Under the pieces are notes generated by a model. That model made no database searches, was not told the origin of the DNA, and saw only the letters and a program-made list of their open reading frames with translations. Position numbers and translations under genes: made by a program. This document shows positions 27,988-33,901 of a stretch of 64,000 bases of DNA, piece after piece; within the stretch, counting starts at the first letter, position 1, and each line of letters opens with the position of its first letter. The DNA comes from Apricaphanius iberus (taxonomy: Eukaryota > Chordata > Actinopteri > Cyprinodontiformes > Aphaniidae), in contig JAPXFQ010001509.1 in NCBI GenBank assembly GCA_028564705.1, positions 555,784 through 619,783 of the forward strand. The letters run 5' to 3'.

Positions 27988-28097
27988 GGGATAATACCCG
28001 ACGAGGTGTTCATTATCAGAAAATAATGGACGGATAATTGTTGCTTCCGCGAAGTCCATTATTTTCTGATAATGAACAACTCGTCGGGCATTATCCC
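27988..28097. mobile_element. Fold-back element: 43-bp arms around a 24-base loop
   Basis: Arm 1 (27988-28030) and arm 2 (28055-28097) are reverse complements with two mismatches over 43 bp; both begin with gggataatrcccgacgag-type ends. The 24-base loop lies between them. The region continues to about 28485, where gaccatggta (28474-28483) mirrors taccatggtc (28103-28112), so this may be one end of a roughly 500-bp composite non-autonomous element. Confidence 0.85.
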
Positions 28098-28483: not shown

Positions 28484-28818
28484 TGATCTAAGGGTGCTTT
28501 CACACCTACATCATTTGGTCCACTTAAAACGGACTGGAGTCCGGAACACCTGCAAGTACGGTTCGTTTGGGCTGGTGTGAAAGCGGACCAGTTTAATTTG
28601 GTCTGGACTATAGTACCTTCTGGAGGTGGTCTCGGTGCAGTTCCATGTGGACTCCAGTGTGGTTCGCTGCTGGTGTGAATGCTGACCGGCCTCGAGTCAG
28701 ACCTGCTCTGTTACGTAGCAGCCTTTTTGGTCCAACGAAGCTTCCGTAGCAAGCTGCGCGGTGTGTTTAGGGAAGCGCAAATTTTCATCTGCACAAGTTT
28801 ATTTTGGAGCCAACCTTG

Positions 28819-28962
28819 GAGAATAATCGGGGACAAACTTGGTCGAAAGAAGAGGTACAGTGCCTCATAGAAATATGGGCAGATGAGCACATTATTGCTC
28901 AACTGTCGAGCACCCACACAAACGCAGAAATTTTCGCAATTTTCAGTAAACAGATGAGATAA
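28819..28962 (+). pseudogene. Myb/SANT-like DNA-binding domain remnant
   Basis: One frame reads ENNRGQTWSKEEVQCLIEIW and continues to a stop after FSKQMR, 47 codons in all. The RGQTWSKEEV...LIEIWADE pattern, with its spaced tryptophans, matches the Myb/SANT-like domain that fish Harbinger elements and related domesticated genes carry. No start codon is in frame nearby, and the frame stops where the family normally continues, so it is decayed. It supports assigning the surrounding element to PIF/Harbinger. Confidence 0.65.
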
Positions 28963-29742
28963 CGCAAACAGGAGAGTTCATCGTTAAGAAATAAACAAAG
29001 TCTGTTCTTCCGGGATTTTTCCCTCTTCATATGTTGTGCCAATCAGCTTTCACCTACGTCACCCAGAACACGGTATTTTGTAAACAGCGCCGCCACATGA
29101 GTGGGGGGGGGATATATAACATCCACAGTGGCTGGTTTGTTCGCAAAAACTCTGGCGTGAATGAGAACCGAGCAAGTTGAGAATTGCAACATTGTAACAA
29201 TTTTGGGGCCCAACTGAACCACTTTACCGCATCAACGTCAATATCACTATAAAGTGCCCTTTGTTGTCCCCATCACAATCACGGATATATTTTGGCCATT
29301 TTGTGTAATAATACTATTCTGGTTGGATACAAGTAATGTTTAAGTACTTTAATACACTTTTGTATAATAATAACTGGAATCAGGTTGGTTTTCCTTTTTT
29401 TATTCAACTTTCTTCTAATGCATCACTGCCCTTCACTTGCGTCCCTCATGCTGGACAGCAGACATCAACCAAGGCTGTTAATGATAAAATAACACATAAT
29501 CAAACAAATTTGCACTTTCCCTTGTTGTTGCTATTAGATAATAGCAAATAAAAAAGGTTTTTGCCATTTTATTTGTTTTTTTACAAAAATATCTTCAGTT
29601 TCATATGCGTCCCTGAACTTAATGTCCACCCTGTCATTATGGGTCACTTGGCCCTTTAATTACTAATATGATGCAATCAGTGACATCATCACCAGAATGT
29701 TGACCCATTTGAACTGAGGTCAGACCAACACCACCAAGAAGA

Positions 29743-30173
29743 GTAAGTACTTCCTCTTATTTTTCATGTTTATCATCATTATATGTTCATTGTTTAATGT
29801 GGTCACACATAACATGTTCACCCTGTCGGCGTAAAAACCTGAAAAGTAACTATTTTTCCCCAAAAGTTTAGGTATATTTTTTCAAAAAATTGCAATGTCA
29901 TCTTCAAGTTAGCTGGTTATGCTAGCTAGTGTCTCACCATGTGGTTGATATAAGCAGATTAGCTAAAATTGTCCACCCTGTCATTGTCCACCCTGTCATC
30001 AAGGCTGTTATGACAGGGTGGACATCACCCTGACAGGGTGGACATCAACCGTTGAGATGGGTAACATAAGACTACGTTTTACACTTAATGCCTATTTAAA
30101 AAACAATAAAACTGATTGTGAAAAGACATTTTACTGTATTTAATGTGTGTTAATAAAATACATTTATTTTCAG
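29743..30173 (+). other. Probable intron in the 5' leader of the element gene
   Basis: A good donor (AAGA|GTAAGT-like at 29743) and a T-rich acceptor (ttattttcag at 30164-30173) bracket 431 bases just upstream of the ATG at 30178. The four-copy motif cluster lies inside it. It is supported only by splice-site sequence. Confidence 0.4.
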
Positions 30174-30177
30174 AAGT

Positions 30178-30477
30178 ATGGTACTTAATGGAGCTGACAT
30201 AGCAAGGCGTTACAGAGAGCGCCGAGATGCAGATCCAGAAAGAAGACAGCAGTATCTTGAGGGAGAGAGAGCCAGGTGGCAAAGAGACAGACAGACTGGA
30301 AAGAAGAAGAGTGTCAATGAAATAAGTGAGCGTGAGAGGAGAGAAAAGAGAAAGAGATGGAGGGAGGCTAAAAGACAAGCCAGAGCAAAGGCCAGGAGGA
30401 ATGCTTTGCCTATGTCAGATACATCCGAAATTCTGCTCTCTGAGCTGCTGCCCCTCCCTCTCCTAGAGAATGACTAG
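30178..30477 (+). CDS. N-terminal remnant of a fish transposon-associated basic protein
   Basis: The open frame has 99 codons and starts with the ATG four bases after a likely splice acceptor. The product is extremely rich in Arg, Lys and Glu (GADIARRYRERRDADPERRQ and later RREKRKRWREAKRQARAKAR), predicting a highly charged helix able to bind nucleic acid. I recall the same N-terminal pattern in long hypothetical proteins present in many copies in fish genomes; in those copies it is followed by several hundred more residues. Here it stops after LLPLPLLEND. The remaining C-terminal part is recognisable about 200 bp downstream, so the copy looks internally deleted. Function is unknown. Confidence 0.5.
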   Translation: MVLNGADIARRYRERRDADPERRQQYLEGERARWQRDRQTGKKKSVNEISERERREKRKRWREAKRQARAKARRNALPMSDTSEILLSELLPLPLLEND

Positions 30478-30651
30478 TATCCCACTAGTGACATCACTAG
30501 TTGAAAACAAGGGAGTCCCAGATGTGTCTGCACCGCTCCTGCAGGCAGAGCGGCTTACCTCTGCTACAGTTCCAAACATCCCTGAACACTACAGCTTAGC
30601 AATATACTTCATTCCACAGCATGTTTTATCATTTAACTTGTTTTACTGTTT

Positions 30652-31194
30652 ATGACCTTGCATCGTTGTATCCTGCAGGGACCTGCACTTGCTGCAATAA
30701 AAGGCACCACTAAGATCCACCAAGCCATCAGTGTGGTCCCTGGAAAGATGAAATACAGGGACATCTCATGTCTGTGCAAAAGGGAGGAGGGGATTCTGGA
30801 CTGCCACTGCTTTCAACTCCAAGAGGTTACATTGGCAGGTTCTCCTATCTCATCTACATCATCTACTCCAACTGCCATGCACAAGCAGAAGAATAATACA
30901 ACTATGAGACCAGAGGTTATTGAGTTGAGTCTTGTTGGGGAATGGTGTGTTGTCAATTATGACAATGAGGGTTACCCAGGTGTAATTTTGGATGTGGAGG
31001 GGGATAGTGTGGAGGTCAAATGTATGCACCGCAATGGTATTAACAAATTTTACTGGCCAAGTCCTCGTCAGGACATTAGCTGGTACAATGATGCGCAAAT
31101 CATTTGCTTAATGCCAGCACCTCAAGCCCTTAATAGGCGCTCCCTGTCTGTTGATCCATCTGTGTGGAAGTATGTGCAAGCTCAATTTGAGTGA
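30652..31194 (+). CDS. C-terminal remnant of the same transposon-associated protein
   Basis: The open frame has 180 codons. The meaningful part probably begins at 30679, after a splice-acceptor-like tatcctgcag. Residues from about 30 onward (KIHQAISVVPGKMKYRDISC) lead into a CxC...CxC arrangement (CLCKREEGILDCHC) that could bind zinc. After a Ser/Thr-rich linker comes VGEWCVVNYDNEGYPGVILD and a following KCMHRNG-NKFYWP stretch. That pattern of alternating hydrophobic strands with the GxW...Y.G-type turns suggests a small beta-barrel like Tudor or SH3 folds (inference). It ends WKYVQAQFE. I recall this arrangement at the C-terminus of multicopy fish hypothetical proteins with a catalytic-looking middle; that middle is missing here. 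Confidence 0.5.
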   Translation: MTLHRCILQGPALAAIKGTTKIHQAISVVPGKMKYRDISCLCKREEGILDCHCFQLQEVTLAGSPISSTSSTPTAMHKQKNNTTMRPEVIELSLVGEWCVVNYDNEGYPGVILDVEGDSVEVKCMHRNGINKFYWPSPRQDISWYNDAQIICLMPAPQALNRRSLSVDPSVWKYVQAQFE

Positions 31195-31552
31195 TCTGAT
31201 TTAAAATGCATGAGAATAGAGAGCAGATTTTGAAAGACAATCTAGGTTCTGTCAACAAAACTGTTGTATTGTTTCTGTTGATGATAATCACCATCGCATA
31301 TATTATAATAGTATTAGTATAAGTATTAACTGAAATGTTGTAATGTTAATACATTGTTTGAGCAGTTCATCTTCCCAGAGCATGTTCTTAAAGACAGGGA
31401 TATAGAATCAAAGCCAGGGATATGGAATTTTAGACAAAAGGGCACAGTATACATCTGTTCTTTTATGACTGTTTAAGTGTGTTATAATTGGCCCTTTTGT
31501 ATGCCTTCCTTCAGTTGTCCTCCCTGTCATGTTACCGTCCACCCTGTCATAT

Positions 31553-31803
31553 GTCATGTTGGGTGGGGGGTGAGGTGAGGTAATGATGTGGGACTGAGGT
31601 GAGGGGGGATGGGGTGGGGTCTGGAGGTGTGGGGGGTGGGGGTGTCTTTGGGGGGTGAGAGTGCGTGGGGGTGGTGGGGTGTCGGGGGGGTGGTCGCGGT
31701 TAAGGGGAGGTGGGGGGGTGTGGGGGGGGGGGTGGGGTGTGTGGTGGTGGGGGTGTTAGGAGGGGGGGAGGGGTTGAAGGGTGGTGTGGGGTGGGGGGTT
31801 CCA
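31553..31803 (+). repeat. G-rich GT/GGG minisatellite
   Basis: About 250 bp are almost pure G and T with scattered A on the plus strand, made of irregular gtggggggt and ggtgtgggg units. It has many G3-G8 runs and so high potential to form G-quadruplexes. The open frame across it is compositional and is not a gene. Confidence 0.9.
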
Positions 31804-33901
31804 CCCTATCGTATGCATTTTAACAAAAAATAAATAAATGTCTTTAAACAAATGACAATGTTTAGCATTTGTTTTTTTTAGGAACATTTAAGAATAAATT
31901 GGTTTTGGATCAATTCGGGTCAGATATGTTTCCTATCTTATGTTTTTACTTTAAATGGTATGTAACTCGGGCAGAGCTCTGATAACAAAACATAGTTTTT
32001 TGTTATTTCTAAAGTTTTTGAATTTTTTTTCCCATTTTTTAAAGATATAAATAAGAGAAGGGACAAAAATATTTTGCAAAGGTGTATTTTTTAGAATGAT
32101 AAGACTGTCAGAAATATTTGCTTTCTGTATCCATTTGTCCCTGACAGGGTGGACATATTTTGTAAGTTGGTTCAAATGTTATTGCTTATAATTATTTTAT
32201 TACAGGTCCAGGAGCTGGGCCAACCAGCAATTGTTTAAGTTTAAAGTCTTCTTAAAAGAATAAACATGTGGTTAAACGAAAAACTTGAACAATGTCTTTA
32301 AGAAATTTTCATCTGTCAAAGGCACTTTATGGTGATATTGTGAAAGCACCCTAAATTAATGTTTGAACAAGACTTCTAATGCCTGAATAAAGAAGAGAAA
32401 CATTTGATATTATTAAAAGAAAAAGAAAAAACATTTATAGACATTGTCTGGCTGTGACAAGGTACTATATCAAGCACTATTTAACACACATATAACCTTT
32501 TTTGTTTCACTAAACACGCAGTTACTGTTCAACAAAACAGAACAGGAATATTCTCAAATCTTTCATGTTCCTGCTGCATATTCAAAATAATTCCCTCTGC
32601 TACATTTATGATAAAAAATGGTTATTTGTTCAGTCAGGGATCAACACCAGAGTGCAAGCCCACATAAAATGTAAGAAAGTGTCCTTTTGAAAAAATTAAT
32701 GTAAAACAGAATTAAGGAGTTGGCTTCAATAGTGCTTTAGTCCAGATGGCCCCAAAACAAAACACTTCACACTAATTTTAAACTTGGAGCTTGAACTTCA
32801 AGGGTGAACAGCTATTCTGCCTTTTAGCAAGCAAATCTTAGCACTTTTTTCAGCTGAAGTGCAAATATGGTACCATATATATATATATACACATTCTATA
32901 CCACTAAGACGGGGCTTTTATTTTCTGAATGGTCCCATCAGAGGCTAAAGAAAAATCAATCAATCTTTGCATACTGAAGAATCTGCTGAAGTTCATTGCA
33001 TATTTCAGTCTATTACAGCAAGCTCACCACATGCCTTTATGATGTGCTGAGTCCCACATTCTGGAAATATGATGTCTTGATTCCTCACATATCTCATATG
33101 CTGGGCACTGGTGATGCGACACGGTCTATAAGAATACATTTCAGGGAGAGAATGGTTTAGAAAAGCAAATATCAGTAGCACTGTATAACAAACCCTTAGA
33201 CTCTGTGATACTCAGGAGTAGAGAATAAAATGTATCCTTCCTTAACAGGTGACAAATACTTTGCGAGGAATGGACCATATTAGCGACTGCTGCATGCAGG
33301 GGTTGCCTAGTGACATGAGGAAAAGCCATTATCATGGCTGGAATACCCACATAACCCAAAATGTTGGTTGCTAATTAGCTCAGGCAGACAACAGGTTGCT
33401 CCCTTCACTACAAACCGACTCCCATTTCTGTACAGTCACTAACTTTCGAAAAGCTAACATGAAACCTCTTTCGGGTTCAATGATTTGTCTAATCACAAAA
33501 TAAATATTTAAATATTGTTTGTTGCGTATGAGTTATAGGATAGGGTTCTTCTTCCTTTGTATTTCAATGTTTCACCCCCAAGAACTGACTGGGGGCAACA
33601 GGTTTACAGTCAAATAAGTCAATAAAGCTCAAAGTATCAGCTCGCTCCTGCTGTGCTGACCCATAACATCACTGAAAACATTCCTTGTGGTTCGTTTTAC
33701 ATCAAAGGCATCATTCAAGTGTTGACGTGTAGACCTGTGACCACCTGATGTTTTCCCAGACAGCCTCTAGCCACAGAAAATACCAAATTATTAACAACAG
33801 GATTGACAGTGTTGTTTAATGTTTCAAGTTTTTTTTTTCAAACCAACAGCATCTAAGTTATGTTGGGGGGGGGGTACAGCAGCAGAAGGTGATATATATA
33901 T

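What the first reader, a model, noticed from the sequence alone, without database searches (positions are those of the whole stretch)
29239..32340. Possible undescribed fish transposon family: nine-copy 13-bp motif plus a two-part gene remnant
All nine copies of GTCCACCCTGTCA (six direct, three inverted, counting two diverged ones) fall inside one 3.1-kb segment that also holds an intron-containing gene remnant and inverted ends. They do not occur in the surrounding Harbinger arms. Motif arrays near transposon ends usually bind the cognate transposase. The gene pieces look like the two ends of a larger protein whose middle has been deleted here. I cannot assign it to a named superfamily.
Basis: partly seen in the sequence, partly recalled or inferred. 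Interest (0 to 1): 0.8.

Follow-up and report, generated by a model that had tools for sequence, protein, structure and literature searches.

The report
Fish transposon with ten-site end arrays
The segment is a disabled copy of a cut-and-paste jumping gene that is scattered through this fish genome; its repeated 13-letter word is one of ten probable docking sites for the element's own enzyme, laid out in nearly the same pattern in distantly related element families.

Summary
The window's own genome, searchable only late, holds 13 further places with this family's exact 24-bp end or a 13-mer cluster. All 10 clusters of three or more 13-mers among the 100 listed places (125 exist) carry pieces of one transposase. 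True ends are GGGTCAATATCAC[T/C]ATAAAGTGCC with 4-bp target duplications (6 of 8 copies scored). The window copy lost GG, ACCC and its duplication; four copies share one internal deletion. Sister copies keep the missing middle, a DDD domain of RNase H-like fold that matches integrases best. Unexpected: related families in this genome carry different 12-13-mers at almost the same positions (six left, four right), although masked spacers between families A, B, D and E align no better than resampled DNA. This suggests transposase-binding sites held at fixed spacing, working like Mu or Tn7 ends; binding was not tested. Superfamily: probably Sola (DDD, 4-bp duplications), unproven because Repbase is not held, so whether the family is catalogued is open. 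Ten text searches of an open-access library, few aimed at the array, showed no report of it.

The parts
29237..29262 (+). Left terminal inverted repeat, clipped: starts GTCAATATCAC where intact copies start GGGTCAATATCAC
   Evidence: intact TIR pattern 19 exact genome-wide vs 0 for the reversed control
32316..32340 (-). Right terminal inverted repeat, clipped: lacks the final ACCC and the target duplication
29624..29636 (+). Array site 1 (left outer, exact)
   Evidence: about +390 in intact copies
29816..29828 (+). Array site 2 (2 mismatches)
   Evidence: about +582
29971..29983 (+). Array site 3 (exact)
   Evidence: about +737
29986..29998 (+). Array site 4 (exact)
   Evidence: about +752
30011..30023 (-). 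Array site 5 (exact, inverted)
   Evidence: about +780
30031..30043 (-). Array site 6 (exact, inverted)
   Evidence: about +800
30178..30423 (+). Exon with the transposase N-terminus (82 codons, charged helical region)
   Evidence: helices in the P0005 model
30424..30572 (.). Sequence at the internal-deletion junction, identical in L011, L012, L013 and the window, not matched at other places among the fetched loci
30679..31194 (+). Exon with the transposase C-terminus, ending in a beta-rich domain (a small SH3/KOW-type barrel is suspected); stop TGA at 31192-31194
   Evidence: strands 730-786 of the P0005 model
31517..31529 (+). Array site 7 (1 mismatch)
   Evidence: about -589
31537..31549 (+). 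Array site 8 (exact)
   Evidence: about -569
31558..31799 (.). G-rich block of about 242 bp, present only in the window copy among fetched copies that cover the place
31799..31811 (+). Array site 9 (3 mismatches), pushed apart from site 8 by the G-rich block
   Evidence: about -547 in intact copies
32142..32154 (-). Array site 10 (right outer, exact, inverted)
   Evidence: about -201
28492..32351 (.). Outer host element: PIF/Harbinger-like, ends GGGTGCTTTCACA, flanked by TAA (28489-28491 and 32352-32354), Myb/SANT-like remnant at 28816-28962

Best explanation
Segment 29237-32340 is a non-autonomous, internally deleted and end-clipped copy of a eukaryotic cut-and-paste DNA transposon, nested in a Harbinger-like element. 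The complete element encodes a roughly 800-890-aa DDD transposase (helical charged N-terminus, Cys/His cluster, RNase H-like catalytic core, beta-rich C-terminal domain) and inserts with 4-bp target duplications. SHOWN: the family, its ends, its duplications, co-occurrence with the transposase, shared deletion copies, and a near-constant layout of ten family-specific 12-13-bp sites (six at the left end, four at the right). INFERRED: the element's own transposase binds these sites. It loads on the outer sites and the inner clusters (left ++--, right +++), which brings the two ends together so that the catalytic core can cut at the GGG termini. The left inner cluster, ending about 135 bp before the start codon, could also let the enzyme regulate its own gene. 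Deleted copies keep both arrays and both ends, so an enzyme made by another copy could move them.
For: 13-mer clusters co-occur with the protein in 10 of 10 clusters among the 100 listed places. The TIR pattern has 19 exact genome matches against 0 for the reversed control. 4-bp duplications are exact in 6 of 8 family-A copies scored and in 14 of 18 copies over all families scored. Complementary deletions: L009 and L014 keep the catalytic part and the C-terminus, L010, L067 and L068 keep the middle, and the window, L011-L013 and L069 keep the C-terminus. The DDD residues and the Cys/His cluster are conserved. The model's core aligns best with integrases, with IstA and Mos1 close behind. Site positions agree between families A, B, D and E in 6-11 of 8-11 sites per ordered comparison (within 12 bp left, 30 bp right, same strand); 11 of 12 comparisons were reached by 0 of 20,000 random placements and one by 1. 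Gapped local alignment of the spacers, sites and ends masked, is not clearly better than resampled DNA in any of 12 end comparisons (10-94 of 100 resamples reach the observed score). The A motif has 10 copies in A and 0-1 in five other families.
Confidence: 0.82

Rival explanations
1. The sites serve only gene control: the transposase or a partner protein binds them to regulate the transposase promoter, and they play no part in pairing the ends.
For: The densest cluster ends about 135 bp before the start codon of the remnant gene (window 29971-30043 against ATG 30178).
Against: Four of the ten sites lie at the opposite end beyond the stop codon, and they keep their layout too.
Confidence: 0.15
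2. The sites are bound by a host DNA-binding protein (insulator, nucleosome-positioning or zinc-finger factor) that the elements exploit or that silences them.
For: Outer and inner sites at each end are about 337-352 bp apart, close to two nucleosome repeats (spacing; the nucleosome comparison is recalled).
Against: Families living in the same genome use different motifs, which a single host factor would not predict.
Confidence: 0.1
3. The window segment is only a chance cluster or minisatellite in old repeat debris, not an element with its own ends.
For: The window copy has no target duplication and carries a G-rich simple-sequence block.
Against: Copies about 99 percent identical at other loci with precise ends and duplications; 0 of 100 shuffles reached nine matches.
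Confidence: 0.01
4. The family belongs to a transposase superfamily that no catalogue holds, rather than to Sola.
For: No Pfam transposase family was matched by the two remnants or by 23 relatives scanned. Most family-A duplications (AGTA, AACC, TTTC, AGAC, ACCT; ATAT is the exception) are not the AT-rich AWWT type reported for Sola2 in one paper.
Against: DDD triad, 4-bp duplications, protein length and TIR length are all of the Sola kind. B, C and F duplications are AT-rich (ATAA, AAAT, ATTT, AAAA, ACAA). Sola is reported from three of four teleosts.
Confidence: 0.2

Closest known systems
Sola superfamily (Sola1/Sola2/Sola3), most likely Sola2-like
   Same: DDD transposase of about 800-900 aa, short TIRs, 4-bp target duplications, reported from fishes and molluscs (passages only: for Sola2; for bivalves and teleosts; the DDD label for Sola is recalled from Bao et al. 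2009, not held)
   Different: Sequence kinship to Sola transposases could not be tested. Most family-A duplications are not AT-rich. No ten-site array is described in the passages I saw.
CMC group (CACTA, Mirage, Chapaev)
   Same: CACTA elements are known for repeated subterminal transposase-binding motifs (recalled). The window ends look like CAC...GTG if the true terminus is missed.
   Different: True termini are GGG, not CAC/GTG (Chapaev hallmark in a passage).
Bacteriophage Mu and Tn7/TnsB ends
   Same: Works alike: several like sites per end, unequal left and right ends, orientation and spacing fixed, RNase H-fold transposase (Mu and Tn7 recalled; IstA and a V-K CAST structure are among the matches)
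   Different: Sites here lie about 200-800 bp inside the ends instead of near the termini. No sequence relatedness to MuA or TnsB was shown.
hAT elements (Ac/Ds, Hermes, Tol2) and P element
   Same: Subterminal repeats bound by the transposase, internally deleted derivatives moved in trans (starts of abstracts of PMC10368747 and PMC3260210 seen in listings; the rest recalled)
   Different: hAT duplications are 8 bp (recalled) and P 7-8 bp (a passage). Here they are 4 bp.
Dada
   Same: Transposon superfamily found in fishes, with introns and a DDE-type enzyme (first part of the text read)
   Different: Dada makes 6-7-bp duplications and targets small RNA genes. Duplications here are 4 bp; insertion into RNA genes was not examined.

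Membership tests
Sola | DDD catalytic triad | tested here: met
   D464, D545 and D587 of P0005: D in 94, 92 and 92 of 94 rows, the rest gaps, and D in 8 of 8 genome copies that cover all three, of 9 examined. Assignment of the third D rests on strand order in a model.
Sola | 4-bp target site duplication | tested here: met
   14 of 18 scored copies
Sola | Significant profile similarity to Sola transposases | not testable with these tools
   Repbase not held; the founding paper PMC2727372 is not held
Sola2 | AT-rich duplications of the AWWT kind | tested here: inconclusive
   Six distinct duplications in B, C, E and F (ATAA, AAAT, ATTT, ACAA, AAAA, CAAT), mostly AT-rich; family A mostly not
CMC/Chapaev | 5'-CAC ... 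GTG-3' termini | tested here: not met
   Intact copies end GGGTCAATATCAC...
PIF/Harbinger | 3-bp TWA duplication and Harbinger transposase | tested here: not met
   4-bp duplications; no Pfam transposase family among 10 relatives at E up to 1
Dada | 6-7-bp duplication | tested here: not met
Kolobok/piggyBac | TTAA target | tested here: not met
   None of the 14 exact duplications is TTAA
RNase H-like transposase/integrase fold | Core beta-sheet with acidic residues on strand 1 and after strand 4 | tested here: met

The most novel reading that the evidence does not exclude
A ten-site, unequal (6 left + 4 right), orientation-fixed array is a defining feature of a whole animal DDD-transposase lineage. 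The site sequence drifts between families together with the transposase, while the spacing, including a repeated interval of about 345 bp between outer and inner sites at both ends, is held over divergence down to about 28-46 percent protein identity. These would be animal elements whose ends are organised like those of Mu or Tn7, and they were not recognised as such before.
Probability: 0.45. Interest if true: 0.75.

Novelty: new variant of a known kind. Interest (0 to 1): 0.6.

Why it matters
Most of the named relatives listed are annotated only as uncharacterised or hypothetical proteins, or under wrong gene names, and 23 relatives scanned matched no Pfam transposase family. The genome holds several related families, some with open reading frames, each with its own site set at nearly the same places. 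That is a natural experiment on how a transposase and its binding sites change together while the geometry of the DNA-protein complex stays fixed. It gives direct, testable predictions about which residues read the sites and how the two ends are brought together. It also offers a sequence-only rule for finding other families: a short word repeated at about +390, +582, +737, +752, +780 and +800 from one end and about -590, -570, -547 and -200 from the other.

Tried and rejected
CMC/Chapaev assignment from the window copy alone (CAC...GTG with ATAT) was attractive at first and was dropped when intact copies showed GGG termini. Dada, Harbinger, Kolobok and piggyBac were dropped on duplication length or sequence. 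Viral contig scans with two alignments found no relative, and a double-13-mer pattern scan found 0. Two scans of prokaryote genomes found no confirmed relative. PDB sequence searches gave nothing convincing (best E 0.43 and 0.018). Rfam (gathering threshold) and tRNA scans of the window were empty. A text search for protein words and the 13-mer gave 0 papers. A text search for TIR words gave 83 papers; the 15 listed looked unrelated by title and abstract start, the other 68 were not listed and none was opened. A gapped global alignment of spacers with free end gaps was uninformative and was replaced by an in-register test and a local alignment test. An upstream extension of the second exon seen with P0032 proved to be a noise alignment. 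Families not listed in the structure comparison are not excluded by it. A genome search with the outer Harbinger arm, to show the empty site, was asked for and never answered; one with the left part of the element did not complete.
Full report
WHAT WAS CLAIMED AND WHAT IS THERE. The 13-mer GTCCACCCTGTCA occurs nine times with up to two mismatches, all between 29624 and 32154, six on + and three on -. Shuffled windows gave a mean of 1.11 and at most 4. A tenth, diverged site lies at 31799. Inverted ends 29239-29261 and 32318-32340 are 91% complementary. The segment sits inside a longer element with 13-bp inverted ends GGGTGCTTTCACA, flanking TAA and a Myb/SANT-like remnant (PF13837, E 0.0001, 23.1 bits, below its cut-off of 27). 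That is the look of a PIF/Harbinger-like element.

THE GENE. Neither remnant matches Pfam convincingly. Searching with the C-terminal piece found 14 proteins of 360-813 aa, 11 of them named fish records and three unnamed. One, from Cirrhinus molitorella, is 96% identical over half the query and also lacks the middle. Searching with the 813-aa relative P0005 gave 341 proteins, of which 120 were listed. A profile of 13 more distant members gave 770, of which 120 were listed. Hosts named in these lists are fishes, molluscs and a beetle, plus two records labelled as bacterial metagenome-assembled genomes. Some 90%-identity clusters hold many sequences (349 for P0149, 131 for P0157; how many genomes they come from is not shown), as expected of mobile repeats. 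tblastn places window 30178-30423 on residues 1-82 of P0047 and 30682-31191 on residues 560-722 of the 722-aa P0004. The pieces are therefore the two ends of one protein.

THE GENOME. The window lies on contig C904 of a 1.195-Gb genome. The exact 13-mer occurs 125 times (79 for the reversed control; about 36 expected by uniform chance). Of the 100 places listed, 61 fall in ten clusters of three or more within about 3 kb, and all ten clusters, the window included, carry family protein. Three pairs (C861, C1026, C1548) were also fetched; one of the three (L020 on C1548) carries an N-terminal remnant. Many of the 33 singletons may be chance: of four looked at (L001-L004), one has a TIR-like end nearby. 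The 24-bp TIR pattern has 19 exact matches and 0 control matches. Contigs with an exact TIR or a cluster, the window apart, number 13.

ENDS AND TARGET DUPLICATION. Intact copies run GGGTCAATATCAC[T/C]ATAAAGTGCC ... and are flanked by 4-bp duplications: L009 AGTA, L010 AACC, L012 TTTC, L017 AGAC, L067 ATAT (in an AT repeat, so weak) and L069 ACCT. L013 and L016 do not match, giving 6 of 8. No copy matched at any other length from 2 to 10 among the seven tested. Other families: B 2 of 2 (ATAA, AAAT), C 4 of 4 (ATTT, ACAA, AAAT, AAAA; two of these with one terminal base changed), E 1 of 1 (CAAT), F 1 of 1 (AAAT), G 0 of 1, L043 0 of 1. The total is 14 of 18. Not scored because an end is damaged, missing, unclear or was not looked for: window, L020, L011, L014, L015, L019, L022, L023, L068, L070, L028, L047, family D, the second F copy L050 and the remaining loci. 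The window copy has AC where intact copies have GG, and runs from GTGATATTG straight into the Harbinger end, so it lacks ACCC and a duplication. It was probably damaged after insertion (inference).

DELETED COPIES. L009 and L014 keep the Cys/His and catalytic part plus the C-terminus; L010 keeps the N-terminus and much of the middle; L067 and L068 keep the middle, L069 the C-terminus. Window, L011, L012 and L013 share one deletion and an identical junction sequence of about 149 bp, so the deleted form itself spread (inference). The window copy alone has a G-rich block of about 242 bp between sites 8 and 9 among fetched copies that cover the place.

OTHER FAMILIES. A genome search with P0005 gave 71 matches, a lower bound. 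Some families have several nearly identical copies with open frames (L021-L024, 99.5-99.9% identical over about 4.9 kb), a sign of recent movement. Protein identity of the family-A copy L009 to B, D and E is 46, 39 and 41%; of the other A copy L010, which covers a different part, 40, 28 and 31%; B-D 32%, B-E 36%, D-E 38%. B, C and G are closer to each other (54-59%), as are E, F and L042/L043 (51-59%), so these are about four lineages, not eight independent ones.

THE ARRAY. For 15 sequences (4 copies of A, 11 other loci) I took the most repeated 12-mer without regard to position (five shuffles each gave best counts of 2-4). Counts: A 9-10, B 8, D 9, L028 8, L043 7, E 6, F 5, L047 5, C 4, G 3, L040 3, L032 9. 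C, G and L040 are thus not or barely above shuffles by count. Positions from the GGG end, gene on +, at up to 2 mismatches: A 390+, 582+, 737+, 752+, 780-, 800- and -589+, -569+, -547+, -201-. B 393+, 583+, 737+, 752+, 774-, 793- and -581+, -563+, -543+, -204-. D (ends inferred) 382+, 575+, 730+, 746+, 769-, 790- and -560+, -540+, -520+, -218-, -183-. E 186+, 392+, 744+, 766-, 787- and -559+, -539+, -194-, with a 3-mismatch site at 586+. C 387+, 704+, 732- and -200-, plus two offset-register hits of its nearly palindromic motif. F 186+, 392+, 740+ and -536+, -513+, -197-. G right end only: -565+, -545+, -205-. L028 right end: -592+, -574+, -554+, -201-. L043, worked out by hand from its candidate ends: 182+, 559+, 713+, 734+ and -553+, -530+, -192-. 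L047 shows three + sites about 20 bp apart and a 2-mismatch - site 350 bp on, besides sites outside the layout. L040 gave no array, and L032 gave a tandem array of another kind. So 9 of 11 non-A loci show all or part of the layout and 2 of 11 do not.

IS IT MORE THAN DESCENT? The site words differ: A TGTCCACCCTGTCAT, B TCAACCCCGTTACA, D GTCAACTCCGTCAG, C TGTCAGGCCCTGTCACA, E TCCTGGGTAACA, G TTCATTCCTGTTAC. A's word scores 10 times in A and 0-1 times in each of five other families; B and D words are similar enough to cross-score, and letter-permuted words reach at most 2, 6, 2 and 3 copies in A, B, E and D. Random placement of the sites (uniform, random strand; tolerance 12 bp left, 30 bp right) reached the observed agreement in 0 of 20,000 trials for 11 of 12 ordered comparisons of A, B, D and E, and in 1 of 20,000 for E against A. 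With sites and ends masked, in-register spacer identity at offset 0 was 0.24-0.30 for 10 of 12 end comparisons, against a background mean of about 0.28; for A-B it was 0.37 left and 0.34 right. At the best offset within 30 bp, 5 of 12 exceeded every offset beyond 30 bp by 0.01-0.06. Gapped local alignment of the masked spacers was not clearly better than resampled sequence in any of 12 comparisons (10-94 of 100 resamples reached the observed score). Spacing has therefore largely outlasted spacer sequence, which indicates selection on spacing (inference). Outer and inner sites are about 337-352 bp apart at both ends in A, B, D and E.

MECHANISM. Different words for different families in one genome point to an element-encoded reader, most simply the transposase. 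Sites at both ends, in mirrored outer orientation with unequal inner clusters, point to assembly of a paired-end complex of the Mu/Tn7 type (that comparison is recalled). The left cluster ending about 135 bp before the start codon fits self-regulation as well. Binding, pairing and cutting are inferred; none was tested.

WHAT IT BELONGS TO. Passages of PMC3627910 give Sola2 an 888-aa transposase, TIRs of 12-21 bp and 4-bp AWWT or AT-rich duplications. Passages of PMC4746887 list Sola in three of four teleosts, absent in tetraodon, and passages of PMC10294476 list Sola1-3 in bivalves. That Sola transposases are DDD is recalled from Bao et al. 2009, whose text is not held. On these grounds Sola is the likeliest home, but the sequence test could not be run. 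CMC/Chapaev fails on termini, and Dada, Harbinger, Kolobok and piggyBac fail on duplication. The statement that I found no report of the array rests only on ten text searches of an open-access library, most of them aimed at superfamilies, and is weak.

Noticed in passing
window 31558-31799: A G-rich block of about 242 bp (strong G/C strand bias) lies inside the window copy at a point where the other fetched copies that cover it have continuous sequence; real insertion or assembly error is undecided.
   Followed up: partly
window 28492-32351: Outer PIF/Harbinger-like element with TAA duplication and a Myb/SANT-like remnant, into which the transposon is nested 11 bases from the right end.
   Followed up: partly
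window about 27989-28095: Long near-perfect inverted repeat (hairpin-like) centred near 28040, seen by eye; a similar stretch appears in the L047/L058 region printed. Not computed.
   Followed up: no
alignment A2 (13 long relatives): The consensus shows an extra segment between the catalytic core and the C-terminus that looks OTU-protease-like to me; 1 of 13 members reaches E 0.028 to Pfam OTU, and three mussel relatives (P0136, P0143, P0158) are labelled Vertnin.
   Followed up: no
proteins P0002, P0003, P0013: Fish records of this transposase family are named glucose-6-phosphate dehydrogenase, enolase or cyclin-dependent kinase 2 in public databases, apparently misannotations or fusions.
   Followed up: no
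proteins P0148, P0159: Relatives appear in metagenome-assembled genomes labelled Candidatus Thiodiazotropha and Sedimenticola, probably animal host contamination of symbiont assemblies.
   Followed up: no
L032 4409-4721: Nine tandem copies of GGTCCTGCCGAC at about 34-40-bp spacing (one gap of 56) beside a decayed relative, unlike the conserved array.
   Followed up: no
L021-L024: Four copies of family B, 99.5-99.9 percent identical over about 4.9 kb with open frames on four contigs, suggesting recent movement.
   Followed up: partly
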